Shown piece after piece: positions 11,288 to 60,591 of a DNA stretch of 64,000 nucleotides. Made by a program: the position numbers and the translations under genes. The notes under the pieces were generated by a model. That model ran no database searches. It had not been told where the DNA came from and worked only from the letters and a program-made list of their open reading frames with translations. Within the stretch, counting starts at the first letter, position 1; the number at the start of each line of letters is the position of its first letter. Where the stretch lies: the NCBI GenBank assembly GCA_014871385.1, contig CM026428.1:4054624-4118623 (forward strand), given 5' to 3'. This DNA is from Ceratodon purpureus (Eukaryota > Streptophyta > Bryopsida > Pseudoditrichales > Ditrichaceae).

Positions 11288-11526
11288 TGGAGTACTTGTG
11301 AAGGGAGGAGGAGGAAGAAGTGAGAGAGAGGAGGAGAGGAGGAGGAGGAGGAGGAGGAGGAAACGAGTGGTGCTGAGAGGGAGTGGAGGTTGGAGTGAAT
11401 AGTGTGGATATTTTGTTGTTTTTTTGTTTTGTAAATGCATTAGTAGGAGGAAGGCGAGGAGGAGAAGGAGAAGGAGAGGAGAGAGGAGGTTGAATTTGCG
11501 AGAGGAGGATTTGAAGGAGAGGAGCC
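11288..11526 (+). promoter_or_regulatory. Purine-rich (GGA/GAGA) 5' leader of the Dof gene
   Basis: This stretch directly upstream of the Dof start codon is dominated by GAG, GGA and AGG runs on the plus strand, notably at 11318-11362 and 11450-11525. GA-rich leaders are common in plant transcripts and can act as GAGA-factor or purine-rich untranslated elements. No clear TATA box was identified, so the transcription start is not placed. Antisense frames here are artefacts of the purine bias. Confidence 0.5.
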
Positions 11527-12771
11527 ATGCATTTGCCGTTGGCGCACCAGGCGCGATTAGCCGGGCAGTTTGAGGACGAGAATGAGGAGATTCATGCGCA
11601 GCTGCATGCGAATTCTGTGTCGCACTCGCATGACGACGATGGCTCGCAGTCGCAAGGGAGCAAGGGGAGCGGGGGAGGAGTCGGAGCGGACGGGAACGAC
11701 GGGAGTCTGACGAAGCCGCCGAAGGACTTGCCGTGTCCACGGTGCCAGTCCATGAATACGAAGTTTTGTTACTACAACAACTACAGTGTGAACCAGCCGC
11801 GGCACTTCTGCAGGAACTGTCAGCGGTACTGGACCGTCGGGGGTACGCTCCGGAACGTGCCGGTCGGGGGCGGGTCTCGGAAGAAGACGCGCACTAGGAG
11901 CCGCAGCGATCCTTATTATCGCCCCGGAAATGTGAATTCCCCTGCACAAGACCATAGCTCTGATGCGGAGACTGAGGCGCCGATGCATCCCGCTATGGCG
12001 ATGGAGTCTATGGAGGCTATGGCCGCCATGGCGGCCATGATGGGCATGGCTGGACCCGAGATGGCGGGGTTAGACGGGGCCTTGGGTGGATTCGAGGACG
12101 CGATGCCGGATTTTCCCTTCCATCCCTCACAGCTGTCTGCTATGCTGCAGTTGACGCTCATGCAGAACGCGGGGATGTATTCACAGTTCATGGACAGGCC
12201 GCCATTTCCCGTGGGGGCGCCAGAGGAGGCAGCGGAGTTTCAAGCGTTGTACGAGGCGCAATCTGCGAATTCCGGGTTTTTGAGCAGCGCGGCTGCTATG
12301 ATGTTCATGCCACAGCTTGAGCCCGCGCATTTGGACTTGATGCATAAGGCAACGCTGTGGGCAGAGGCGCAGCGGTTGCAGGCGGTCGCGCGGCGGCAGA
12401 GCCAAGCGCAAGCAGCTTCGGCATGGGCCTCGTCGGCAGAGGAGCGGGAATGCAAGCCGCAACAAGCGAGCACGCATATGCCGCACCGGCAGCATGCGGC
12501 TATGGAGGAGCTTCTGCAACGGCAGCAGGCCTCGGCGGGGAGGCATCACCGCCCGGGATTCTGGGAAACGGCTTTGATGCATAGCAGGCCGAGCAAGCGA
12601 GTTCCGGGTTGGAGCGAACCGAAACCATCGTCGACGACGCACGGTAGTGCGAGCACGGTCGAAGAGGAGGCTGGCAACCCTGCCAATGGAAGCTATTCCC
12701 ACGGTGGCTACGACGACTCTTCTTCCTGGGGTAGCGGCATGCCTGGGGCCTCAGACTTATACTACCCGTAG
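11527..12771 (+). CDS. Dof-type zinc-finger transcription factor
   Basis: This is a single-exon gene encoding 414 residues. The Dof DNA-binding domain spans about residues 66-120 and is complete, with cysteines at 70, 73, 95 and 98 (C-x2-C-x21-C-x2-C) and the family signatures KFCYYNNY and [17 protein letters not shown]. Dof proteins bind AAAG cores in plant promoters and act in the nucleus. The basic run RKKTRTRSR just after the domain (about 118-126) is a likely nuclear signal. The N-terminus is acidic and His/Ser-rich. Residues about 152-180 are Met/Ala-rich, and Ala/Gln-rich stretches follow, which may be activation regions. The ATG at 11527 opens the frame just after a GA-rich leader. 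Family membership is certain, but the subfamily and target genes cannot be read from this sequence. Confidence 0.95.
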
Positions 12772-23139: not shown

Positions 23140-23680
23140 AGGTGCGGAGGCGTACAGTTCCGCGGCTGCGGGGGAGCGCTGCGGGGTACAGCTGCGGGGT
23201 ACAGCTGCGCGGTACAGCTGCGGGGTACAGCTGCGGGGTACAGCTGTGGGGTAGAGCTGCGGGGGAGCGCTGCGGGGTACAGCTGCGGAAGGAGCTCGGA
23301 GGGAGCGCTGCGGGGGAGTTGCGGAGGGAGCATTGCGGGGGAGTTGCAGGGGGAGCGCTGCGGGGGAGCGCGGAGGGAGCGCTGCAGGGGACCGCTGCGG
23401 GGGAGCGCTGCGGGGGAGCTCGGAGAGAGGGAGACGCGGAGGGAGCGCTGCGGGGGAGTTGCGAAGGGAGCATTGCGGGGGAGCTTGGAGGGAGCGCTGC
23501 GGGGAGCGGGTACAGCTGCATTTGCTGCGGGGGAGCTCGGAGGGAGCTGCGAAGAAGTGGGGAGCGGGCGGAAGGGGGAAGTCGCAACGCAAGGAGCTGC
23601 GGCGCAAAGGAGTTGCGGCGGAAGGAGCTGCGGCACAAGTGAGCTGCGGCAGAAGGGAGCTGCGGCGCAAGGGGCAGCGA
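23140..23680 (+). repeat. GC-rich minisatellite upstream of the coiled-coil/RING-like gene
   Basis: Units of about 13 bp (GGGGTACAGCTGC, at least five copies near 23170-23260) pass into longer, less regular units built from GGGGGAGCGCTGC, GAGTTGCGGAGGG and GGAGCATTGC. A splice donor, CGAG|GTAAGT, follows at about 23719. An acceptor lies just before the next coding exon, so this repeat probably forms the promoter and leader exon of that gene. The long open frames on both strands here are low-complexity artefacts. Confidence 0.75.
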
Positions 23681-41595: not shown

Positions 41596-41766
41596 CCATA
41601 TAACCTATACCCTACACACTAGACCCTAGAAACCCTATACCCTATACCCTACACAGTAGACCCTAGAAACCCTATACCCTAGACCCTAGAAACCCTATAC
41701 CCTAGACCCTAGAAACCCTATACCTTAGACCCTAGAAACCCTATACCCTAGACCCTAGACCCTAGG
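41596..41766. repeat. Interstitial telomere-like array
   Basis: About 170 bp consist of CCCTAGA and CCCTATA blocks joined as CCCTAGAAACCCTATA, a degenerate relative of the plant telomere repeat CCCTAAA. There are roughly eight higher-order units. AT-rich DNA continues on both sides, so this is an internal site and not a chromosome end. Confidence 0.75.
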
Positions 41767-48627: not shown

Positions 48628-51272
48628 CTAATCCCTGAATTTTGCCGGAACCGTCAACCTCACCTGATTAACCCGGAGCTTTTTGATGTTAGAGTCCTGG
48701 ATGCTTGGGGCGTTCTTTCCATCTCCTTTACTGTTGCTGCCCTGATACATAGGTGCCACCGTCAAAATCTCAGTCAGTGGCCGCTCAATCCTGCGTGTAT
48801 GATTTAGTGTTTCGACCTCTATAGACGGACTTTTTCGTTTCTTTGTGTACACCGCCGCTGACTTCTGTCCAGAAGCTTCCCCCTCAGAGGCAGTCGGTGT
48901 TTCCAAGCCCTTACTCCTTCGCCGACGTGTAAGGATCTTGAAACTTTCACTTTTGCACACACTCTGTGTTGCCACCTGTGCTTCTTCTCCTTCCGGTTTC
49001 TCAATTGGGCACTCTTGGAACTTCTCCCCAGGCGTCTCTTTGATCTCATTATCCGGCTCCTCTGGAATCTTCTCGGCTGCCAATACCGTAGATACCGTCC
49101 TCACCCCTCCCTGCGAGAACAAGTCATCGTCACACCAGTGCACGAGCCCATCTCCCTCCTCATCGTCGTCACTGCCCTCTGGTTCCGTTTCCTTCGCTAT
49201 GGCACCCCCATTTCCAAAAAGCAATGGCCGTGCATTGGTCTTCGGTGGGATAGGAATCCATCCTGCGATCCCACTATTGCACAGGGGACATTTGTCTATA
49301 CCTGAAATGCACTTGAAACAGAAACCACCATGTCCACAAATCTGCACGAGGAAAGTCACCGATATCATTAATTTCATTCTGAAATTATCATTTAAGAAAA
49401 ATCCAGATTCCACATATGACATCCAATATGGAAGAGATAGTGCCCAAATGAAACCAAAAATTCAGATCTTGAGTTCTTTAGAAAACTTGTAAAATCTAAA
49501 TTAAAAACAAAAAACAGAGCACGCAAGAGGCTTTACCGTAAGCTTCACTGCCGGAGGCTTGATCTTGCAGACACTACATACTTCTTCACCCTTACAATTC
49601 ACTGCAGCACATTCCTCCCAGATGTCGTTAGTCACACTAGACTGCGAGTGATGGAAAATATTATGCAACGCCAAGTCAGGCTCCGACGCAGAAGGTGGAT
49701 CACTGTCTACATTCAAATTTTCATCGGTCCTGTACAAAGATCCTTCGATTCGCTCTGAATTACAAGCTGTTGAAGTTGACGTACTCGGAGTAGCAGTCCT
49801 TGTCTCACGTGCTACACAGGCCTCATTTGCCAAGGAAGGCGACGAAGGCAGATTTCGCTTTATTCCTGGTACTGCAAGAGGCAAAACAAATTGTCAAAAA
49901 CATCCGAGTACTAGTATAACAAAGTTAGACAGAAGAATAGGAAATAAGGAATTTCCTCACAATTAAAGGAGTCCCGGATTGAATGGAAGGTCAAGAGTCC
50001 TTAGGTTGTACTGATTACTTTCCGTAATCCTCTAGAATTCCGTTCAGGAATGTAGTCCGTCGAGTTTTGATTCTATGTCCATGTTCCGGAACTGGTCAAG
50101 GAATGGACATGTCCGGAAATGTTATCCTTTACTCTACCTCTCTGTCCAGATTCCATTCCTGAAGCAGGTGACTCCTTTAAATGTCCGGAAATCAACCTCC
50201 ATTCTTCAGCACCTTTCAGATTCCATTCCGTCCAAGTCCCGAAGCTGGTACTCCCGGACGTGTCCTTAAATTTAAACCCTCACTTGACCTCTCCGTGCCA
50301 ATTCCGTTCCGTTTGAGTCCTGGAACTGTTCATCCTCGACATGTCCGGAACTAGACCCACCCTAAACCACGGACATTCCAGAATCTGTTCTCTACTAGCA
50401 ATGGACTCAAAAAAAATTTAAGGCACGGACTCAAACTGCCTATGTCCTGATTGTTCTACGGATTCAAACTGCCTATGTCCTAACATTTGCTACGGACTGA
50501 AATGTCTGATTAAGGCACAAACTCCAATGCATTGTTAAGGACTGAGGACTCATGCATTCCTCGACAGACTTTCCTCAAAGGACCGTAAATCCTATTTCTT
50601 TGAAATGACGGATTCTTGAACAACGAAAACATTAAACGTCTGATATCCTGAACTCCTTCCTGACTTGTTGACAAGAATTACTCAGAGACTGAATTAGACT
50701 TAAGGAACCGAGAGGAAGGACATTGTCAAGAACTTGGAAAGGGAAAATTATCGGAAGAGAAATGAATTAAAGTATTTCTTACCTAAGTTCTGTAGCCGCA
50801 ACGTCTCTCTCTGGGTGTCCTTTGAGCTGTCACCCTCGGTCTTGACAATGGAATTGATACTGCTTCGAGTCTCCCTAAACCGAATGCCAATGGACGCTAT
50901 GGACGATGGAGAGAATTCTTTACCACAGTCTTGAAAACAGCACGATGAAGATGACCTTGCATGCTGCAAAAGACAGAAGGGATGGTAGGTGTGTCCACAA
51001 CACACCGGGACAAAGTTGTTCTCCGTATACCAAAAACCGCAGACTGGACATGCGTTGAGTGTGTGGACAAAGGTCACTGGCTTCTGCGGATTGTTTGGTA
51101 GTGGCCTCGGAAAGAAAGCATAAGGGTGCGGGTACGCTTGGGGTACCCCGCCCCGGACATTCTGGAACTCCGGAACAGGACATCCACAACCACGTTCACC
51201 ATCAACATTGCGACTCATCATTCCTTCGCCGGACTGGAATGGCGGGAAACCCTGAGCAGTCTCCCGCGCCAT
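48628..51272 (-). CDS. RING-finger protein A (three exons)
   Basis: Exons are 51272-50783, 49871-49537 and 49341-48628, joined in frame to give about 512 residues. The start at 51272 (MARETAQG) is the first in-frame ATG. Exon 1 carries a degenerate RING-like cluster, NACPVCGFWYTENNF with CCGHTYHPFC and a later Cys group. The exon 2/3 junction forms a classical C3HC4 RING: VCSVCKIKPPAV, then ICGHGGFCFKC, then CPLC. The C-terminal half is acidic, then basic (ILTRRRRSK, TKKRKS), and ends RLTVPAKFRD. It is a diverged paralogue of the gene at 51657-55628, which shares intron positions and both zinc clusters. It lacks that gene's long coiled-coil N-terminus. The RING implies E3 ubiquitin-ligase activity. 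Intron 1 is rich in TCCGGA and AGTCC. Confidence 0.75.
49872..50782 (-). repeat. Intron 1 of RING gene A with dense AGTCC/TCCGGA motif
   Basis: TCCGGA occurs at 50085, 50112, 50184 and 50344. AGTCC, GTCCG and GGACT variants fill much of the rest between 49970 and 50730. Confidence 0.65.
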
Positions 51273-51656
51273 GTCTGCTTGCGTGGCCACCACCCCGCCC
51301 AACCATCTTGCGCCCCGCCATTTTCCAGATACAAAGTTTCTTTTGAGTCAGATTCTCCTTATCTTTCGCACAATCTGCCACGCATTGTACCCTCGCATTG
51401 AACTCGCATCGCGGATTTGTCAGGCTCCTTTAGCGCGGTAAGTTTAGGCAGCTTCTTGGAGGCTTCTTGTAGCTTCGTCAGTTTTTTTTTGTAGCTTCCT
51501 TCTGTTGTTGCTTGCTTGTTGTGTCGTTCTCTTTTCGGTGTCTCCAGGCTGTGAATTGTTGAGCTCTCCGAAACTTCTTGTTATGGTTTAGGTAGACTCT
51601 GTTTTGCGATCTTTGACAATGTTTTCTCTAAAGTACTATGTGTGCTTATCCTGTAG
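51273..51656. promoter_or_regulatory. Shared divergent promoter between RING genes A and B
   Basis: Only 384 bp separate the two start codons. A leader intron of gene B begins at a donor GCGCG|GTAAGT (about 51437) and ends CTGTAG immediately before its ATG, so transcription of B starts upstream of 51437 and both promoters must lie in about 160 bp. No TATA box is convincing. Confidence 0.55.
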
Positions 51657-54600
51657 ATGGCCGAGGTTTTTCCTATTAAGTCTGGTAAGGAGTCTTTGAG
51701 CCAGGATCCCGCTTTCGTAAAGTTCTCTTCAGTTCTCCCCTCCTCTGGTGCGATCGTAGACGAAATTCGCGACGAAATCCCGGAGTCTGTAGTGTCCTCA
51801 TATTTCGGGCCAAAGGCTTCGAAATCTGGCTGGAAATATGCGAAGCATACATCCGCAGAAGATGCCGCCTCCATTTTAGAGCTTTGGCAGAGGGTGTACG
51901 ATGACACCCACATGCCCAACAAGGAGATTTCGCTCCAGTTCGCTAGAGGTCTCATTTTGCAACAGACGCAGCCCGTCAATTGGGCCGAGTTCGCAGTCCG
52001 TAGGCAGCGATACAGAGAGCAGCTAAGAGAGTCGAAAATTAAGACCGGTAGCGTGAAGGTTGAGAAGAGTGGCGGTGAGATTCTTGGAGGGGTTCAAGTA
52101 CTTGGCAAGAGAAGGCTTCAGGTAGGGTCACCGAAGGAAGTGCCTTTGCCGGCGCTGAAACTCACCCTCAAGTCCGAGGTTGACGAGGACTGTGTGATGG
52201 GGAAGAAGGTCTTAGGGGCATCCAGAAAAGGCCTTACTGTAATCGCAGCTCCTCGTTGGGCGCAGACAGATCTGGAGGCCATGTCCGATGTGATTGCAAG
52301 AACCGAGACTCTGTTAGCAGGGTGTCGGGCAGAGCTCTCAGAGAGGTTAGTGGATGTCGAGGGATTAGAGGGTCAGTCGAGGAGGGCATCAATCATGTTG
52401 TCTGATCGGGTTGTAATGTTAGAGGAAAATGAACGTGAGTTGGCAAATTTGACGGAGCAGCATAGGCAGCTTCAAAGAAAAATTACAGAGAGGGAGTCGA
52501 TATTGTGTGAGGAAGAGAGCAGTGAAGATTTAGCGTCGACCCTCATTGCGGACAAGCTTCAGAGTGACGATCTTTCTTTGTCGATGACCCTTGCGTCCAA
52601 GACGGCTGCTCACTGTCGGATAATCGTGGCTGGATGTCGGGGGAATTTGGAATCAATTGAGGGTCGCTTGCGTGAGAGTTTAGAGAGGCAGGTGAATGTT
52701 CAGAGTAGGGTTCTTGGACTGGAAAGACTGCTCGTCGGCATGCAAGAACAATCAAAGAAGATGAGCGAGGGGACAGGGGTTGCTCTCTTTCCAAGACCGC
52801 TTGACAACAACCCCGACAAACCTTCCTCTACAATGCACCTGCTCAATGCATGCCCCGTTTGTGGGTACTGGTACATTGCGAATAATTTTGTTCCTTTATG
52901 CTGTGGGCACACGTACCATGGTTTTTGTTTGGCTCAGCACGCGGCAACATCTTCAACCTGCTGCTTCAAGAATTGTGAGAAGGAATTTTCTGTGGACAGC
53001 GTTACCTCAATAGGTATCAGGGTTTCGCAGGGCATTAGCAAGATCGGCAACAACGTCAAGGTTGAAGAGGCGGGTCAGTGCCGAAATTTGAAAACCAAAG
53101 GTGAGCGTGGGTACAGGGTTTTCTGGATTCTGATTGCCTTCTTGGAGTTCAATAGAAATGCTTTGTTGTGATTTGTTTCTGTTGGTTTTTTTCCTAAATA
53201 GTTTCGCTGTTGTGATTGCTCGAGCCTTGGTAGATTTCTTGGTTTCTTGAATTTCGTGATTAAAGCTACTGTGTATGATGAACGAATACTAAGCTGCTGC
53301 TCGAAGGTCTTTGTTGTGGGAGGCCGTAATTGAGTCTTTGTTGTGTGAGGCGTAATTCTTTACAATTTAGGGTGACAAAGGCAGACGAATTATGTTTCTT
53401 TCTGGGCCATGGCACGGGTTGAACGGGATTTTTTTTTAATCTGCCAGAAGGAACAGAACAGGAGCTAGGATTTGATTTCAGTCCGTTTAAGCCTTTTGTA
53501 ATCTACGATTTGTTTTGCTAAGTACTTCTGTACTCACTAGACTTGAAGTCCGGAGATGCCCTGTTTAATGTATGAGCAAGTTCTTTCAGTCCTTCCCTAG
53601 ACAAATTTAACTGACTCTGATATGGGAGTCCGAATGTGCTCTTGATGTGCTAATCAAGGTTCCGTGAGTCTGTTCCGTGAGTCTGTTCCGTGGGTCTCTT
53701 CCTTCAGTCTCTTCCTTGAATCTTTTCCTTGAGTCTGTTTCTTCAGTCTAGGATTTATGTCTATTCCTTGAGTCTGTTAGGATTCTAGTCCTTTCCTTGC
53801 GTCTGTTCCAATTCTCTCCCTTTCCTTGAGTTCCTGCTGATTCTAGTCCTTTCCTTGAGTTGATCCTTATGTCTGATCCTTTGGTTCCTTGAGTCTGGAA
53901 TGTCTGTCTATTCCTTGAGCCGGTTCCAGTTCTAGTCCTGACCTTTACTCAAATTCCTTATGTCTAATTCTTTGATCCTTAGGTCCGGTCTTTCCTCTCC
54001 AGTTATAGTCCTTTCCTTTACTAAAATTCCTTATGTCTAATCCTTTGATCCTTAGGTCCGGTCTGATCCTTTAGTCCGGACTTCCCTCGAACTACATACT
54101 GAAGAAGGCTGGAATTCATACGGACTGACGGAATGAGTAGTACTGCGTAGATAGGGTCCGTTCCGGAGCGGTTGAGGCTAGTCCGCTACTGTCCGTGTTT
54201 GGATTGATTAAGGACTTCTTGTAGGCCTAAAGGAGAGGATCTATAAGGAATTTTATAAGGATTTAACGGACACCAGGAATAGTTAATAGATCCGGGTTCA
54301 AAATGGTAGCAGCTCCGTTGTGGGTTGTAGTAGCAGTGAAGGTATAGGCTACTTTAGACTAAGGTGAGTTGTGTGTTGACAATTCTCAGCATGGAATTAA
54401 CTTTCGCTCAACCGGTGATTATGGCAGGAACAGGATTTAGGGTGAGTTTCCCGCAGATTTCCAGGCCAGCATTGCAAGAAGGTTTTCGAACACCAAGTAC
54501 CTCAGCATCAAGATCCCAAGACTCTGAACCTGGCAGTGAATCTTCTCAGAGAAGGGATGAGAACACGATCCATGTATCTGCAAGGAAGAGATCTCCACAG

Positions 54601-55628
54601 AGTGAACAAGTCGATAAACTGGCAGGGAGTGATAGCTCTAACATCCGCTTTTTTTCAGACCTGGCACAGACCGGCTTCAATCAGTCCCAATCTAGTGTTA
54701 GTGACGACAATGCAGGGAAAAACAAGGCATCAGATGAAGGAACGGAAGAAGTTTGTACCATGTGCAAGATCAAACCAGCAACAATGTCGCTCACGGTAAT
54801 TCTCCATTTGGATTAGATGAAATGCAGTATTTGCTTTCTTTGCAACACATCCACGTATGATCTTGTACTTTATTGTGATGTTGTACTATTTCTCTGCAGG
54901 CTTGTGGACATGAAAACTTCTGCTTTAAGTGCATCTCGGGTGTAGAGAAATGCCCCGTATGCATGAAGGACATTGCGGGCTGGTCTCGTATTACGAAGAA
55001 GTCCAGCGTGAGCCCATCTGTCGAGAAACTTGTGGCTGCCGCAGAAGTCGAACGTGCAGAACCAGAAGATAGCGATGACGAGGATATCAGAGGGCTTGTG
55101 CATTGGTGCGATGACGACTTGTTCTCCCAGGGGGGTATGCGGACAGTTGTGGGGACCGACGCTGTTGACGTCCCAGACATAGACGTCATTGAGGAGTCGC
55201 AGGTGAAGGAGAGGCCTGGGGAGGAGAGACCCCCGAGTGAAGAGGAAGAATCTCTAGACAATGCTGAGTGTCCAACGGAGACTCCCGAGCCTCACAGGAC
55301 ATTCAGTCGCCGTGCTAAGAGGACATCTGTTGCTGTGGAGGAGCCCGCGTTAGCTGATGCTGAATGTCAGCCTACGAAGCCAGCTGCAAGGTTGTCTAAG
55401 AAGCGTGGCCGGAAATTAGTTGGGCTGGATACTTTAAACCACACACGTGTGATGGAGCGGCCACTCACTGACATTTTGGTGGAGGCGCCACTAGCGGCTG
55501 AGCCTATTAGCAAAGACATGGGAAACAATTCAGATCCACCTTCGGCGTTTGTTGGTAAGAGGTTGCGTACAGGAGCCACGCGGGGCAGTCTTTGTCGGTT
55601 GACAGTCCCTGCGAAGTTTAGAGATTAG
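51657..55628 (+). CDS. Coiled-coil RING-finger protein B (three exons)
   Basis: Exons are 51657-53100, 54428-54795 and 54900-55628, in frame, about 846 residues. Order of parts: an N-terminal helical domain with Trp/Tyr residues (about 40-130); a basic linker; a long coiled coil (about 205-375); a RING-like cluster with NACPVCGYWY, VPLCCGHTYHGFC and CCFKNC (about 398-445); a Ser-rich linker; a classical C3HC4 RING made of VCTMCKIKPATM, ACGHENFCFKC and CPVC (about 589-626); an acidic stretch with GLVHWCDDDLFSQGG; and the terminal RLTVPAKFRD shared with gene A. The N-terminal half parallels the accessory protein of the 10.8-kb transposon. Biochemically it is likely an E3 ubiquitin ligase; a role in transposon regulation is inferred from its setting. 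Intron 1 carries the AGTCC/TCCGGA motif. Confidence 0.8.
53101..54427 (+). repeat. Intron 1 of RING gene B with dense AGTCC/TCCGGA motif and a TCCTT(C/T)CTTGAGTC array
   Basis: TCCGGA occurs at 53549, 54075 and 54162. Between about 53640 and 54060, imperfect 15-20-bp units such as TTCCTTGAGTCTG and AGTCCTTTCCTTGAG are tandemly arranged. The composition matches the introns of RING gene A and of the transposase at 43.0-45.2 kb. Confidence 0.7.
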
Positions 55629-56092: not shown

Positions 56093-56135
56093 AACCCATA
56101 CTGTTTGCTACACATCCGATGGTTTGATATAAATA
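56093..56135 (+). promoter_or_regulatory. Plant-type Pol III promoter of RNA gene copy 1 (USE + TATA)
   Basis: A USE-like AACCCATACTG (56093-56103) is followed after 24 bases by TATAAATA (56128-56135). This spacing matches plant Pol III snRNA genes such as U6 and not the wider Pol II spacing. Confidence 0.65.
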
Positions 56136-56164
56136 GAAGTCTCCTACTTAGTATTTCCAGTTAG

Positions 56165-56311
56165 AGCCGTGGTGGCTTGGTGATCCGAGGCTCCGGTCAG
56201 AGGCTGCCGTGGCAACCTCCGGGTGCTTGTGCCGGGCCTCAGACCACCCTCCGACACCCACCCCACCACCGCTATCCGACCCTCAACCTCCACTCCACCA
56301 CACTTTTTTTT
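56165..56311 (+). ncRNA. Structured Pol III RNA, copy 1 (unidentified family)
   Basis: The transcript is inferred to start near AGCCGTGGTGG and to end in a T8 run (56304-56311), about 140-147 nt. The predicted fold has a basal stem (GTGGTGG with CCACCAC), a middle stem (GGTG-A-TCCGAGG with CCTCCGACACC, one mismatch) and an upper stem (GGTCAGAGGC with GCCTCAGACC, one mismatch). These are capped by a conserved GTGGCAACC...GGGTGCTTGTGCC region. It does not match U6, U3, 7SL or tRNA as I know them. It is nearly identical to copy 2, including promoter and 3' flank, so the pair arose by segmental duplication. The exact 5' end is uncertain by several bases. Confidence 0.65.
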
Positions 56312-56627
56312 CTTTTTTTTAGTGTGATTTCCTTTACTTCTGTGTTCGACATAGTCTTACCGTACAATAGGAATTGGATGCATTAATTCAATCAGCACAT
56401 GTTGGCGCCATGATATGTGGATGAGGGAATGATCTCCACGAGGTTATTTATATAAAAACGCAGAGGGGATAACTCGGGTGTGGCTTGGTTACAGTCTTTA
56501 GAATTTTAGATTCATATGTTATCTCTTCATTTCAAAATCTGAGAGCATTACAGTAGAGGAACTCCAAATCATACGTTGCTCAAATAGTTCAAAGTGCGAA
56601 GTTGGGGAGCAGATCCAGTTGACATTT

Positions 56628-56670
56628 AACCCATACTGTTTGCTACTTATCCGATGGTCTGATATAAATA
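56628..56670 (+). promoter_or_regulatory. Plant-type Pol III promoter of RNA gene copy 2 (USE + TATA)
   Basis: AACCCATACTG (56628-56638) and TATAAATA (56663-56670) are separated by 24 bases, as in the other three copies. Confidence 0.65.
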
Positions 56671-56699
56671 GAAGTTTAGAATATGGTATCTCCAGTTAG

Positions 56700-56846
56700 A
56701 GCCGTGGTGGCTTGGTGATCCGAGGCTTTGGTCTGAGGCTGCCGTGGCAACCTCCGGGTGCTTGTGCCGGGCCTCAGACCTCCCTCCGACACCCACCCCA
56801 CCACCGCTATCCGAACCCCAACCCCCACTCCACCACACTTTTTTTT
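56700..56846 (+). ncRNA. Structured Pol III RNA, copy 2
   Basis: Starts near AGCCGTGGTGG and ends in T8 (56839-56846). The upper stem GGTCTGAGGC/GCCTCAGACC is perfect here, whereas copy 1 has one mismatch. The basal and middle stems are as in copy 1. The homology with copy 1 extends from about 56615 to beyond the T-run, which marks a recent duplication about 535 bp apart. Confidence 0.7.
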
Positions 56847-57641
56847 CTTTTTTTTGGTGAAATTTCCTTTACTTCTGATCTCGAGTAGCTGATGGACACT
56901 CAATTAGTCTTACGCAGTATACTCAAGCTGCTACTATTTACTCAATCCACACAACTTAGTTCTCTATTTCTAATTTTTGGTGTCAAATGATAGCTTGTTG
57001 GAATAAATCTTTCACTGGTTTCTTTTCAGAAACGCCTGTTTCCACATCTTGAATTCATGACATTTGAATGTTGATCATCACACTACAATGTTTTAACGCA
57101 AGTGACATCTTCACGAAATTGATCCTCATCGTGTGCCTGCAAAGCTCACAAATCCATATCAATTCTAAACCATAATCCAACCATATCAATCCTAAACCAT
57201 AATCCATGCTACAGAAAGGCAGTGAACTAGCCAGAATTCAACTCGACAGTCTAGTTCCAGAGATGTCTAGGCTGTAGGGTTCTAGATCAAGTAATTGCCA
57301 TGAACTATTAATCATATTGTCTCAAGAGGAGTAATTGGTGTCTCAGTACTTAAGCTTCTAGTCTGTCCATTCGAAGTTCTGTCTTGTGAGTCAATTATGT
57401 CCCCGGCAATGAGTGAATTATTATTTAACTCTTAGGACATCTAATCCTATTGAACTTAGCAACGTTCAGACACAGTACCAGTGCCTCGCCACGTGAAACT
57501 GCTTCCTACTGTAGAGGTCCAGGGCAGCTTCATCAGGTGGGGCGCAGAGTCTCTAAGTTCATTGTCTTTGAGCACCGGAGCTTGGAAGTATTTGTAAGCT
57601 GTCTAGGATCTCGACCGTGTTGGAGGGACTGTGTTAGAGCG

Positions 57642-59081
57642 ATGGCAGAAGCTGGAGGGAAGGGAAAGGAGATGGCAGGAGTAGTTGGGAAGGGGAAGGA
57701 ACAACAGAGAGACGAGGAGGGGAACGGGGCTGAAACCTCGGACGGAGTGAAGACTGAGCTCCGTCTTGTTGGAGACTACGAGCAGGGAGATTTAGAAGTT
57801 TGGAAGGGGTCGGCAGAGAGAAGAGGAGGGGAGTACCAACTACTTAGAGATGCACCAACTAACCTACCTTGCTTGCGGTGGTGGCTGAAGACGGTGGCAG
57901 AGTTCGTTGTCGTCACCGGGCTGGAGGTTCCCAAGCATGACAAAGTCCAGGAGATGCCGTCCGCAAGTTGGCGAGGTGCTTGGAAGATGAAGGCGTTGCT
58001 GCAGTTCCAAGCGGTGGCGCATGCCACAGGCATAATGCATCCACCGCGACCGCGACGACAGGGACCTCAACAAACTTGTGGGGAGCAGCGCGAAAATCAA
58101 CACCTCGGAAGCATCAGGTAAGTACCTGCTCACCAGTCTTAGCACCTTCTTAGAATAGTCTGAAAGCTTGGCTGGTGTTGTAGAACTTGTAGCCTGCAGG
58201 ATTGCATCATCCAGAAACTTGCGCAGTAAACCCGCGCAGTAATTATTTCAGTAAATCTCTAGCTTAGCATCCTTCTAGCTTAGTGTGGGTTGTAATTTCA
58301 GTGTTCTAGACTAGTTTCTGAATTTCGAGAACTTACTAGTGAACTTGCGGGTTCTTTTAATTCCGGGTTCTCATTGTCTGCTGTTAGAGTAGGATCTTAC
58401 ATGTAGTGCAAATCTTTAAATATTTATGCCCAAATTGGTCGGTTGTCTTTCATGTTGGTCTTTCTGTTAATTGTCTTGAAATAATCGTGAAATCAGCCAA
58501 GTTGTCGGGAGCAACGACCTTCCATCGCCTGGGAAGCATCAAGCAGAGGCTGTCAAACAGCCATCAACCGGGAAGGAGGTCGCGGGAGCATCGGGTGGGG
58601 TGCCGATCGAAGAAGCATCAGACGTGCCAGTGCCATCCCGTGGGAGTCCAACGGAACTACGACCAGTTCTAGCACTACCGGCGGTCACAAGAGAGAGAAC
58701 CACCGCTCGTCGCCGTCAGTCTACTGTAGGCGCCGCTGGAATGGCAAACACTCCGAACCTCGCGGGTTGGTGCCGGGCATGCAAAGCAAGGTACCGTGAC
58801 GGTCACATTCTCCATTGCCCATACTCAGTCCACGCGCCGCAGACTGCCCCAAGCGAAGTGGTACCTGTGATAGATCTGTCTTCCATTCCGAGCTCTCCCG
58901 ATTCGGACGACTTCGAAATCCTGGCTGAAATGGCGGCACTTGATTTCCTCAAGAACTCTAAAGGTATGTATGTAATCACTAACTGCATGTTTAATTTCAG
59001 TTCATTTGATACTTGATACCATTTTTCAAGATGTAACAACACATGTGGTGATATGTCGCAGGAAAAAAAGACAACAAATAG
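57642..59081 (+). CDS. Small protein with CxxC...HxxHC zinc motif and a SUMO-interaction-like motif (three exons)
   Basis: Exons are 57642-58117, 58497-58963 and 59062-59081, joined in frame (phases 2 and 1) to give about 320 residues ending KGKKDNK. The ATG at 57642 begins MAEAGGKGKEMAG. The N-terminal 160 residues are charged, with LPCLRWWLKTVAEF as the most ordered part. The C-terminal exon has WCRACKARYRDGHILHC, a compact Cys/His cluster likely to bind zinc, and then VVPVIDLSSIPSSPDSDDFE, a hydrophobic core plus acidic serines typical of SUMO-interacting motifs. I do not recognise the family. The in-frame splicing across three exons supports a real gene. Its place between RING gene B and the RNA gene cluster suggests it may belong to the same transposon territory, but its introns lack the AGTCC motif. 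Confidence 0.5.
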
Positions 59082-59470
59082 TCGCGATTGCGGGATTCTG
59101 ACTTACGGTGTGCAAGCTCGAAGAATGTAAAACGAACGTGAATATTCAAAACCGAGGGAATATTTTGTTAGGATGTAAAACACGAAGAATGGTCTACCGC
59201 AGTAGCAGGTCCTGAAGAAATCCGACAGTCACTTGGAAAGGGAGAAATCATGGTACCTTGCTCGGTACGTAATATTAGAGATGAAACGTGCCTTTTGTCT
59301 TTGCTGTGCACCTTGTTAAATCTGTCACGAGGATCATCGTACAAAACTCTGCCTTAATTCCGATGGAAACAAAAACTCTGCCGCGTCCACGGTGTTACTG
59401 TAAACATGGTCTCTGACGAACTACAGTACAGTAAAGTTTTTGTAAGTGAAACTGGTTCATGGCGGGACTT

Positions 59471-59513
59471 ATCCCATAGCGAATGGCATTGCACCTTTGG
59501 TCTGATATAAATA
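59471..59513 (+). promoter_or_regulatory. Plant-type Pol III promoter of RNA gene copy 3 (USE + TATA)
   Basis: ATCCCATAGCG (59471-59481) matches the plant USE consensus RTCCCACATCG at 9 of 11 positions. TATAAATA follows after 24 bases (59506-59513). Confidence 0.7.
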
Positions 59514-59543
59514 CTCTCACCGGGTAATTCTTCACTAGATGAC

Positions 59544-59668
59544 AGCCTGAAAGGGTCGGTGATCAGAGGTTGCGATTGTTTGGGGGGACACGTGGCAACC
59601 CGGTGCTTGTGTTAGGCCCCAAACTACCCTCAGACACCCACCCCGCCACGCTACTTTTGCACTTTTTT
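59544..59668 (+). ncRNA. Structured Pol III RNA, copy 3
   Basis: Starts near AGCCTGAAAGGG. A T4 run at 59655-59658 and a T6 run at 59663-59668 end it, giving about 112-125 nt. The upper stem is now GTTTGGGG with CCCCAAAC, still fully paired although it differs from copies 1 and 2 on both sides. The 5' AGC can pair with GCT just before the first T-run. The capping region GTGGCAACCCGGTGCTTGTG is conserved. Copies 3 and 4 form one subtype, copies 1 and 2 the other. Confidence 0.7.
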
Positions 59669-60174
59669 ACATTGGCATTTTTTAGGCTTCAGATCCCTGA
59701 GAAAAGAGTGGTGAACATCAGTCGACTGGCCTCATACCCCACATTTTAGCCTCAGAATCCCTTCTAACTTCCACTGCAAACTGTAGTACTACCGCGTAAG
59801 CGAAGATTAACAAAAATCCATCAAGTCTTACATCAAAGGCGTCGGATAGGAAGACACAGATAATAGAGTGCAATTTAAAATAATTCGCTAATCTCCAGGG
59901 CATTGAGTTCAAGACACAATCCGTTGTTCGTGACAGGGGTCAATGAGTTCGACAGAGTGAGGACTTCAATGTGATGATCGTAAAGGTATAGATGATGAAT
60001 TCGCTAACCTGTGCATAACTCCGTGGCCGTGACAGTGAGCCAACCCTGTGCAAAGCTGATACATGAAACTCTACATCACAGAAGCAGAACGAAAACTTTC
60101 AGTATTCAACAACCACAACATGAACTGCATCGAAGTGAATTACGTCTCAACGATCTAAGGATGTGTAGAAAAAA

Positions 60175-60340
60175 GAGTACCTGCACGACTTTAACAGGGA
60201 GAGGCTTCCCGCTAGGTCCGCGACCGTGCAAGTCAATGTACTTCTTGAGATCAGTATCCATGTACTCGAACACCAAGTAAAGCTTGGGCTTCTTGTTCTT
60301 CTCGACGTGCTCCACACACAGCAGCCTCCAGATCCAATGA
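60175..60340 (-). pseudogene. Captured CDKB (B-type cyclin-dependent kinase) exon fragment
   Basis: One exon-like segment encodes RLLCVEHVEKNKKPK, then LYLVFEYMDTDLKKYIDLHG, then PLPVKVVQ, followed by a splice donor CAG|GTACTC and intron-like sequence. This matches the plant-specific B-type CDKs just upstream of the catalytic loop. Homology begins abruptly at about 60338, and no other kinase exon is present, so this is a fragment and not a gene. The retained donor and intron show it came from genomic DNA. It lies between RNA gene copies 3 and 4 and, like the phototropin piece, inside transposon-rich sequence. Confidence 0.75.
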
Positions 60341-60398
60341 TATCCACTTCACAATTAACATCCAAACCCTCCTAAAAACCAGCGCACCCCAATGATAT

Positions 60399-60441
60399 CC
60401 CATACCGTTTGCATATGTATCTCTGGTCCGATATATATACC
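60399..60441 (+). promoter_or_regulatory. Plant-type Pol III promoter of RNA gene copy 4 (USE + TATA)
   Basis: ATCCCATACCG (60399-60409) matches the USE at 9 of 11 positions. TATATATA begins 24 bases later (60434-60441). Confidence 0.7.
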
Positions 60442-60471
60442 TTCGCGCGGATATATGTTTCCAGTTCACAG

Positions 60472-60591
60472 CCTGAAAGGGTTGGTGATTAGAGGCTCCG
60501 ATGGTTTGGGGCTGCCGTGGCAACCTCCGGGTGCTTGTGCCGGGCCCCAAACCACCCTCTAACACCCACCCCGCCACGCTAACTTTTTTGG
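60472..60591 (+). ncRNA. Structured Pol III RNA, copy 4 (best-formed copy)
   Basis: Starts near AGCCTGAAAGGG and ends in T6 (60586-60591), about 114-120 nt. The middle stem GGTG-A-TTAGAGG (60486-60497) pairs completely with CCTCTAACACC (60558-60568) apart from the bulged A. The upper stem GGTTTGGGGC (60505-60514) pairs perfectly with GCCCCAAACC (60546-60555). The ends AGC and GCT also pair. Relative to copies 1 and 2, several pairs changed on both sides, for example C-G to T-A in both stems, which argues for selection on the fold. Function unknown. Confidence 0.75.

What the first reader, a model, noticed from the sequence alone, without database searches (positions are those of the whole stretch)
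56093..60591. Cluster of four unidentified Pol III RNA genes with covarying stems
Four plus-strand copies each have a USE-like box, exactly 24 bases, a TATA box, a conserved ~110-150 nt body and a T-run. The 45-nt promoter block aligns without gaps in all four. The upper stem is GGTCTGAGGC/GCCTCAGACC in copy 2 and GGTTTGGGGC/GCCCCAAACC in copy 4, and both sides change together. The middle stem also keeps pairing (TCCGAGG/CCTCCGA, TCAGAGG/CCTCAGA, TTAGAGG/CCTCTAA). The 5' AGC and 3' GCT close the fold in copies 3 and 4. I know of no U6, U3, 7SL, MRP or tRNA with this sequence. Because the external promoter is copied too, the copies spread by DNA duplication and not by SINE retroposition. It may be an undescribed small RNA family.
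Basis: partly seen in the sequence, partly recalled or inferred. Interest (0 to 1): 0.92.

Follow-up and report, generated by a model that had tools for sequence, protein, structure and literature searches.

The report
Undescribed plant Pol III RNA genes
Four neighbouring copies of a short gene in a plant-lineage genome carry the promoter and stop signal of a small structured RNA made by RNA polymerase III, and the RNA matches no catalogued family, so it may be a new kind of small plant RNA whose expression still has to be shown.

Summary
Four plus-strand units each have a plant-type USE (7, 7, 9 and 9 of 11 matches), exactly 24 nt, a TATA box, an A in a YAG context exactly 31 nt after the first T of TATA, a 109-111 nt rod-shaped core and a T-run with no earlier TTTT. 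A Markov control gives 0.07 such promoters per 64 kb. Three of the four fold better than every shuffle; copy 3 does not. In the consensus rod 97.8% of cells pair, with four doubly compensated pairs. Copies 2 and 4 differ at six stem bases, which make three compensated pairs and no broken one (P 0.00075; 0.007 with a copy-4-only structure). Rfam, even at E<=10, gives only implausible hits, and motif checks argue against the known plant type-3 RNAs. Most likely these are Pol III type-3 genes for an uncatalogued structured RNA that acts as a protein-binding scaffold. Promoter and fold are shown by sequence; transcription, partners and function are inferred. No eukaryotic relatives could be searched, so breadth and novelty stay open. 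Retroposition is not supported.

The parts
56093..56103 (+). copy 1 USE (AACCCATACTG, 7/11 to RTCCCACATCG)
   Evidence: consensus from a passage of PMC9845283
56128..56135 (+). copy 1 TATA box, 24 nt after the USE
56159..56307 (+). copy 1 predicted transcript (start A at TATA+31; rod 56165-56273 closed by AGC/GCT; T-run 56304-56311)
   Evidence: start and end inferred
56208..56231 (+). copy 1 apical block (24 nt)
56628..56638 (+). copy 2 USE (7/11)
56663..56670 (+). copy 2 TATA box
56694..56842 (+). copy 2 predicted transcript (rod 56700-56808; T-run 56839-56846)
   Evidence: start and end inferred
56743..56766 (+). copy 2 apical block (24 nt)
59471..59481 (+). copy 3 USE (ATCCCATAGCG, 9/11)
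59506..59513 (+). copy 3 TATA box
59537..59668 (+). copy 3 predicted transcript (rod 59544-59652; T-runs 59655-59658 and 59663-59668, so the end may lie at either); weakest fold
   Evidence: start and end inferred
59591..59611 (+). copy 3 apical block (21 nt, three bases shorter)
60397..60407 (+). copy 4 USE (ATCCCATACCG, 9/11)
60432..60439 (+). copy 4 TATA box (TATATATA)
60463..60589 (+). copy 4 predicted transcript (rod 60470-60580; T-run 60584-60589)
   Evidence: start and end inferred
60516..60539 (+). copy 4 apical block (24 nt)

Best explanation
A small family of Pol III type-3 genes. The USE (the SNAPc site) and the TATA box 24 nt downstream recruit Pol III. Transcription starts at the A 31 nt after the first T of TATA and ends in the T-run, giving an RNA of roughly 122-150 nt with a U tail. 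The RNA folds into one long rod: a closing stem, a lower stem with a bulged A kept in all four copies, a covarying upper stem and a strongly conserved apical hairpin. The likely role is a protein-binding scaffold (a small RNP RNA), with the U tail bound by La and the apical hairpin and bulged-A stem bound by specific proteins. Copies arose by local DNA duplication. Shown by sequence: promoter anatomy, predicted fold, compensation, uneven conservation. Inferred: transcription, transcript ends, protein binding and function.
For: Spacing of 24 in 4 of 4; 0.07 such promoters expected per 64 kb. YAG at a fixed +31 in 4 of 4, agreeing with TATA at about -30 (PMC9845283 passages). No internal TTTT in 4 of 4. 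Island conservation in the ungapped comparison: USE 8/11 and TATA 7/8 invariant, TATA-to-start 1/20 and 40 nt upstream 2/40. Copies 1 and 2 differ at 8/20 spacer against 4/120 start-and-body positions, Fisher 1.5e-5; spacer matches are no better than with shuffled letters in the three comparisons made (P 0.35, 0.37, 0.84). 133 of 136 cells paired, 4 doubly compensated pairs; slid controls 32-53% paired with 0-1 such pairs. Copy 2 against 4: 3 compensated and 0 broken pairs, P 0.00075. Three of 4 copies beat 200 of 200 shuffles. No plausible Rfam family. The copies score 114-136 bits with their own model, the 58 loci from pattern scans at most 17.1.
Against: No RNA evidence. Only 4 copies, effectively 3 lineages. 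In the column shuffle, 25 of 500 shuffles reach the 4 doubly changed pairs and 454 of 500 reach the count of further pair types. With a structure from copy 4 alone, 4-5 of 41 pairs break in the other copies and P is 0.0035-0.011. The spacer-body contrast is marginal for copies 3/4 and 2/4 (0.047, 0.053). Sequence 3' of the T-run, which should be free, is also 19/22 identical between copies 1 and 2, and with gaps their 60 nt above the USE still give 38 matches, 13 mismatches and 18 gap columns, so the contrast may partly reflect a local replacement. The USE of copies 1 and 2 matches the consensus at only 7/11. Copy 3 folds weakly. The scaffold role rests on analogy.
Confidence: 0.66

Rival explanations
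1. Decayed or lineage-restricted duplicates: the family was once a Pol III gene but these copies are now mostly pseudogenes or transcriptional noise without a function.
For: Tandem-like clustering; copy 3 has lost part of the apical hairpin and folds weakly; copy 1 has an A.A mismatch in the upper stem; gene-fragment and TE-like surroundings (my reading by eye).
Against: Promoter islands, fixed +31 start, T-runs and compensated pairs are kept while neighbouring bases have diverged.
Confidence: 0.17
2. A very diverged member of a known type-3 RNA (telomerase RNA, 7SL/SRP, RNase MRP, U6, U6atac, U3) that covariance models miss.
For: Same promoter class; Arabidopsis telomerase RNA was earlier described as the Pol III RNA AtR8 without its template being noticed (PMC6765143 passage).
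Against: No hit to any of these at E<=10 in the two stretches searched (that Rfam holds models for them is recalled); no AAACCC template core, ACAGAG, box C, MRP/P, Sm-like or SRP word in 4 of 4 predicted transcripts, though the short box D word CTGA and an H-box-like word each occur in 3 of 4 (motifs partly recalled); a single unbranched rod.
Confidence: 0.06
3. A SINE-like or other mobile element that carries a type-3 promoter.
For: Four copies in a window with TE-like ORFs (by eye); a review says that USEs also occur in SINEs (PMC12133305, passage); an A-box-like word in copies 1 and 2.
Against: Upstream promoter copied; no target-site duplication in 4 of 4; no B box in 4 of 4 and no A box in copies 3 and 4; all copies within 4.5 kb on one strand and none elsewhere in the 64 kb.
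Confidence: 0.07
4. A hairpin precursor of regulatory small RNAs (siRNA or miRNA-like) made by Pol III.
For: Long well-paired upper stem in copies 2 and 4; an 11-base invariant run in the 3' arm.
Against: The apical part is as strongly conserved (20 of 24 columns invariant), which a miRNA loop need not be; the longest uninterrupted helix is about 12 pairs; the only miRNA model hit is on the opposite strand at 16.7 bits against a cut-off of 84.
Confidence: 0.04

Closest known systems
Plant type-3 Pol III RNA genes (U6, U3, MRP, SRP/7SL, telomerase RNA)
   Same: USE and TATA with Pol III spacing, start about 30 nt after TATA, T-run terminator (PMC9845283, PMC12133305 and PMC6765143, passages; list partly recalled).
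   Different: Body matches none of them in Rfam or by motif; copies clustered; one unbranched rod.
Dictyostelid class I RNAs
   Same: Multi-copy, often clustered small RNAs with an upstream element, many with a T-run, a stem joining the two ends, compensatory changes in the stem and a conserved sequence block (PMC7919456 passages).
   Different: 42-65 nt, no long rod, an 11-nt motif next to the 5' stem rather than at the apex.
Y RNAs / stem-bulge RNAs
   Same: Small RNA with U tail, lower stem with a bulge, upper stem and loop (PMC7281143 passages).
   Different: No Rfam hit at E<=10; the bulge is an A, not the Ro-binding bulged C (recalled); that review says Y RNAs have not been identified in plants.
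Vault RNAs
   Same: Roughly 100-150 nt Pol III RNA closed by its two ends (recalled).
   Different: Vault RNAs use internal A and B boxes (recalled); B box absent in 4 of 4 here.

Membership tests
Pol III type-3 gene (plant) | USE related to RTCCCACATCG | tested here: met
   7, 7, 9, 9 of 11; copies 1 and 2 are weak matches
Pol III type-3 gene (plant) | USE-TATA spacing of the Pol III rather than the Pol II class | tested here: met
   24 nt in 4 of 4; Pol III genes have the USE one helical turn closer than Pol II snRNA genes (PMC9845283 passage); the 23-26 nt figure is recalled
Pol III type-3 gene (plant) | T-run terminator and no earlier TTTT | tested here: met
   4 of 4
Pol III type-3 gene (plant) | Pol III- and SNAPc-dependent transcript | not testable with these tools
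   no RNA data
Telomerase RNA | template for the telomere repeat (CTAAACCCT in Arabidopsis) | tested here: not met
   AAACCC absent in 4 of 4 predicted transcripts
U6 / U3 / MRP / 7SL | match to the Rfam model | tested here: not met
   none at the gathering score in the window or at E<=10 in the two stretches that hold the copies
Y RNA | match to the Rfam model | tested here: not met
   no hit at E<=10 (presence of a Y RNA model in Rfam is recalled); only the general lower-stem-with-bulge layout is shared
Y RNA | binding to Ro60 | not testable with these tools
   host genome not held, no protein data
Vault RNA | internal A and B boxes | tested here: not met
   B box 0 of 4; A-box-like word 2 of 4
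Dictyostelid class I RNA | 42-65 nt with an 11-nt motif beside a terminal stem | tested here: not met
   predicted 122-150 nt; terminal stem present but the conserved blocks are apical and in the 3' arm; whether Rfam holds this family was not checked
SINE | target-site duplication | tested here: not met
   0 of 4

The most novel reading that the evidence does not exclude
An expressed, so far undescribed RNP RNA of streptophytes, working as Y, vault or dictyostelid class I RNAs do elsewhere: a rod-shaped Pol III scaffold RNA that would join the short list of plant type-3 RNAs and supply the missing plant counterpart of such scaffold RNAs.
Probability: 0.33. Interest if true: 0.85.

Novelty: new variant of a known kind. 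Interest (0 to 1): 0.62.

Why it matters
The list of plant RNAs known to be made from USE/TATA Pol III promoters is short (my view, from the passages of PMC9845283 and PMC12133305 and recall). One of them, Arabidopsis telomerase RNA, was first described as a Pol III RNA of other interest, AtR8 (PMC6765143 passage). A covarying, multi-copy family with this promoter and no Rfam match is a concrete candidate for another, and it is directly testable by RNA-seq and pull-down. Y RNAs are said not to have been found in plants (PMC7281143 passage), so a plant scaffold RNA of this type would fill a visible gap.

Tried and rejected
Homologues: a body pattern gave 1 IMG/VR and 18 GTDB matches, a second body pattern 1 IMG/VR match, a promoter pattern 38 IMG/VR matches. 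With the covariance model these 58 loci reach at most 17.1 bits against 114-136 for the copies (L001-L019 at E<=10; L020 at E<=10, no match; L021-L058 at E<=1, no match), so I treat them as chance. The window's genome is not held.

tRNA or tmRNA: none in the window. The bacterial promoter and terminator scan was at shuffle level and is not relevant to a eukaryote. A 3' extension in copies 1 and 2 looked like a repeat of the 3' arm but is not significant (P 0.13). Retroposition: no target-site duplication.

Literature: ten searches of the open PMC library; among the papers listed (titles and starts of abstracts; three listings, showed only 15 of 21, 15 of 41 and 12 of 66) I saw none that describes such an RNA. 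Most subscription papers are not held, and a 2021 paper on early plant telomerase RNAs was not found by its DOI, so this is weak evidence of absence. Passages were read in five papers: PMC9845283, PMC12133305, PMC6765143 (also its abstract), PMC7919456 and PMC7281143.

A claim dropped on checking: that the apical block is the longest invariant stretch. The 3' arm has an 11-base invariant run, the apical block two of 10.

Full report
What is there. The four units are at 56093-56320, 56628-56855, 59471-59668 and 60397-60589, all on the plus strand. A profile of the four finds no fifth copy in the window (next hit E 1.2). The covariance model finds the four at 114-136 bits and, apart from their own reverse complements (21-29 bits), nothing else in the window at E<=10. 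The window is from a plant-lineage eukaryote by my reading: it has a Dof zinc finger in the ORF at 11515-12768 (Pfam E 1.7e-32; that Dof is a green-lineage family is recalled) and a CDK-B-like exon by eye. The species is unknown and its genome is not held.

Promoter. All four have a USE-like 11-mer, exactly 24 nt, and TATAWATA. A Markov control gave 0.07 such sites per 64 kb on both strands (100 sequences, maximum 2); with USE matches of at least 9 of 11 it gave none. The thresholds were chosen after seeing the copies. The published plant consensus is RTCCCACATCG, with TATA about 30 bp before the start and the USE one helical turn closer to TATA in Pol III than in Pol II genes (PMC9845283, passages). 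In 4 of 4 copies an A preceded by C or T and followed by G lies exactly 31 nt after the first T of TATA, which is the most likely start. T-runs of 4-8 end each unit and no TTTT occurs before them. Compared without gaps, 8 of 11 USE positions and 7 of 8 TATA positions are invariant, against 1 of 20 between TATA and the start and 2 of 40 above the USE. Conservation is therefore in islands at functional sites. Copies 1 and 2 differ at 8 of 20 positions after TATA but at 4 of 120 from the start through the body (Fisher 1.5e-5), and the spacer matches are no better than with shuffled letters. The other two comparisons of spacer and body are marginal (0.047 and 0.053). Against this argument, the 22 nt below the T-run of copies 1 and 2 are 19/22 alike, and their 60 nt above the USE align with gaps at 38 matches, 13 mismatches and 18 gap columns, so not every unconstrained base has diverged.

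Structure. Each copy folds on its own into a rod of the same plan: AGC/GCT closing the ends, GGTG/CACC with a bulged A kept in all four, the GAGG/CCTC stem, the upper stem, and an apical hairpin. In copies 1, 2 and 4 the apical loop is C(UCCG)G, a UNCG-type tetraloop (name recalled), below it a second bulged A; copy 3 has a larger loop instead. Energies beat 200 of 200 shuffles for copies 1, 2 and 4 (z -3.1, -4.8, -4.3) but not for copy 3 (z -1.2; 28 of 200). The alignment consensus has 34 pairs, 4 of them with changes on both sides; 133 of 136 cells pair. Sliding the partners by 1-3 columns gives 32-53% pairing and 0-1 compensated pairs. In the same call's column shuffles, 0 of 500 reach the covariation score, the cells paired or the doubly changed cells, 25 of 500 reach the number of doubly changed pairs, and 454 of 500 reach the number of further pair types. 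Re-pairing the columns at random never reached the observed values in 20000 trials, a lenient control. Placing the same substitutions at random on stem positions gives P 0.00075 for copy 1 or 2 against copy 4, and 0.0077 for copy 3. With a structure predicted from copy 4 alone the values are 0.0035, 0.0071 and 0.0106 for copies 1, 2 and 3, and 5, 4 and 4 of 41 pairs break. The lowest stem is re-paired rather than covarying: copies 1 and 2 use GTGGTGG/CCACCAC, copies 3 and 4 use GGGT/ACCC. Conservation within the body is strongest in the apical block (20 of 24 columns invariant, in two runs of 10; the other four columns differ only in copy 3) and in an 11-base run of the 3' arm, ACACCCACCCC.

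What it is not. Rfam: no family reaches its gathering score in the window. At E<=10 the two stretches with the copies give four hits, three archaeal small-RNA models and one animal miRNA model (kinds partly recalled), all far below their cut-offs, two of them on the minus strand of a copy and two outside the copies. No tRNA. Predicted transcripts lack a telomere template core, the U6 ACAGAG box, box C, an MRP/P word, an Sm-like site and the SRP word, 4 of 4; CTGA and an H-box-like word each occur in 3 of 4 (motifs partly recalled). No B box in 4 of 4. No target-site duplications.

Mechanism. The best reading is a Pol III RNA that works as a protein scaffold: U tail for La, and the apical hairpin plus bulged-A stem for specific proteins, with the covarying rod as a spacer. 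The promoter and the predicted fold are shown by sequence. The rest follows from how small Pol III RNP RNAs work in general (Y RNAs: poly-U tail bound by La, lower stem with bulge, upper stem, loop; PMC7281143 passages) and is inference. Dictyostelid class I RNAs are the closest parallel in genetics: clustered copies, an upstream element, an end-closing stem with compensatory changes (PMC7919456 passages). Membership fails for each known RNA family tested, so I describe it as a new family within the type-3 Pol III class.

Limits. There is no RNA evidence, and no search of eukaryotic genomes was possible. The 58 fetched loci come from prokaryotic and viral collections and are treated as chance matches. 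Ten searches of the open library listed no description that I recognised; three of these listings were capped and the library lacks most subscription papers.

Noticed in passing
window 48628-55625: Two inverted two-gene units: RING-like proteins (sub-threshold Pfam match for the second) 48628-49461 (-) and 54879-55625 (+), 41% identical, and cysteine-rich proteins 50748-51347 (-) and 51657-53168 (+), 64% identical over 95 aa.
   Followed up: partly
window 60190-60348 (-): An isolated CDK-B-like exon reading (label recalled; no Pfam hit) ends about 50 nt from the USE of copy 4; no further exon was recognised by eye in the flanking ORFs.
   Followed up: no
window 41604-41765: Degenerate CCCTA-rich tandem array that looks like an interstitial telomere-type repeat.
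   Followed up: no
window 56445-56486 (-): A fifth USE-like site (7/11) with 23 nt and TATAAATA on the opposite strand between copies 1 and 2, without a copy of the RNA body below it.
   Followed up: no
window 23165-23679: GC-rich tandem repeats with 12-115 base periods, open in several frames.
   Followed up: no
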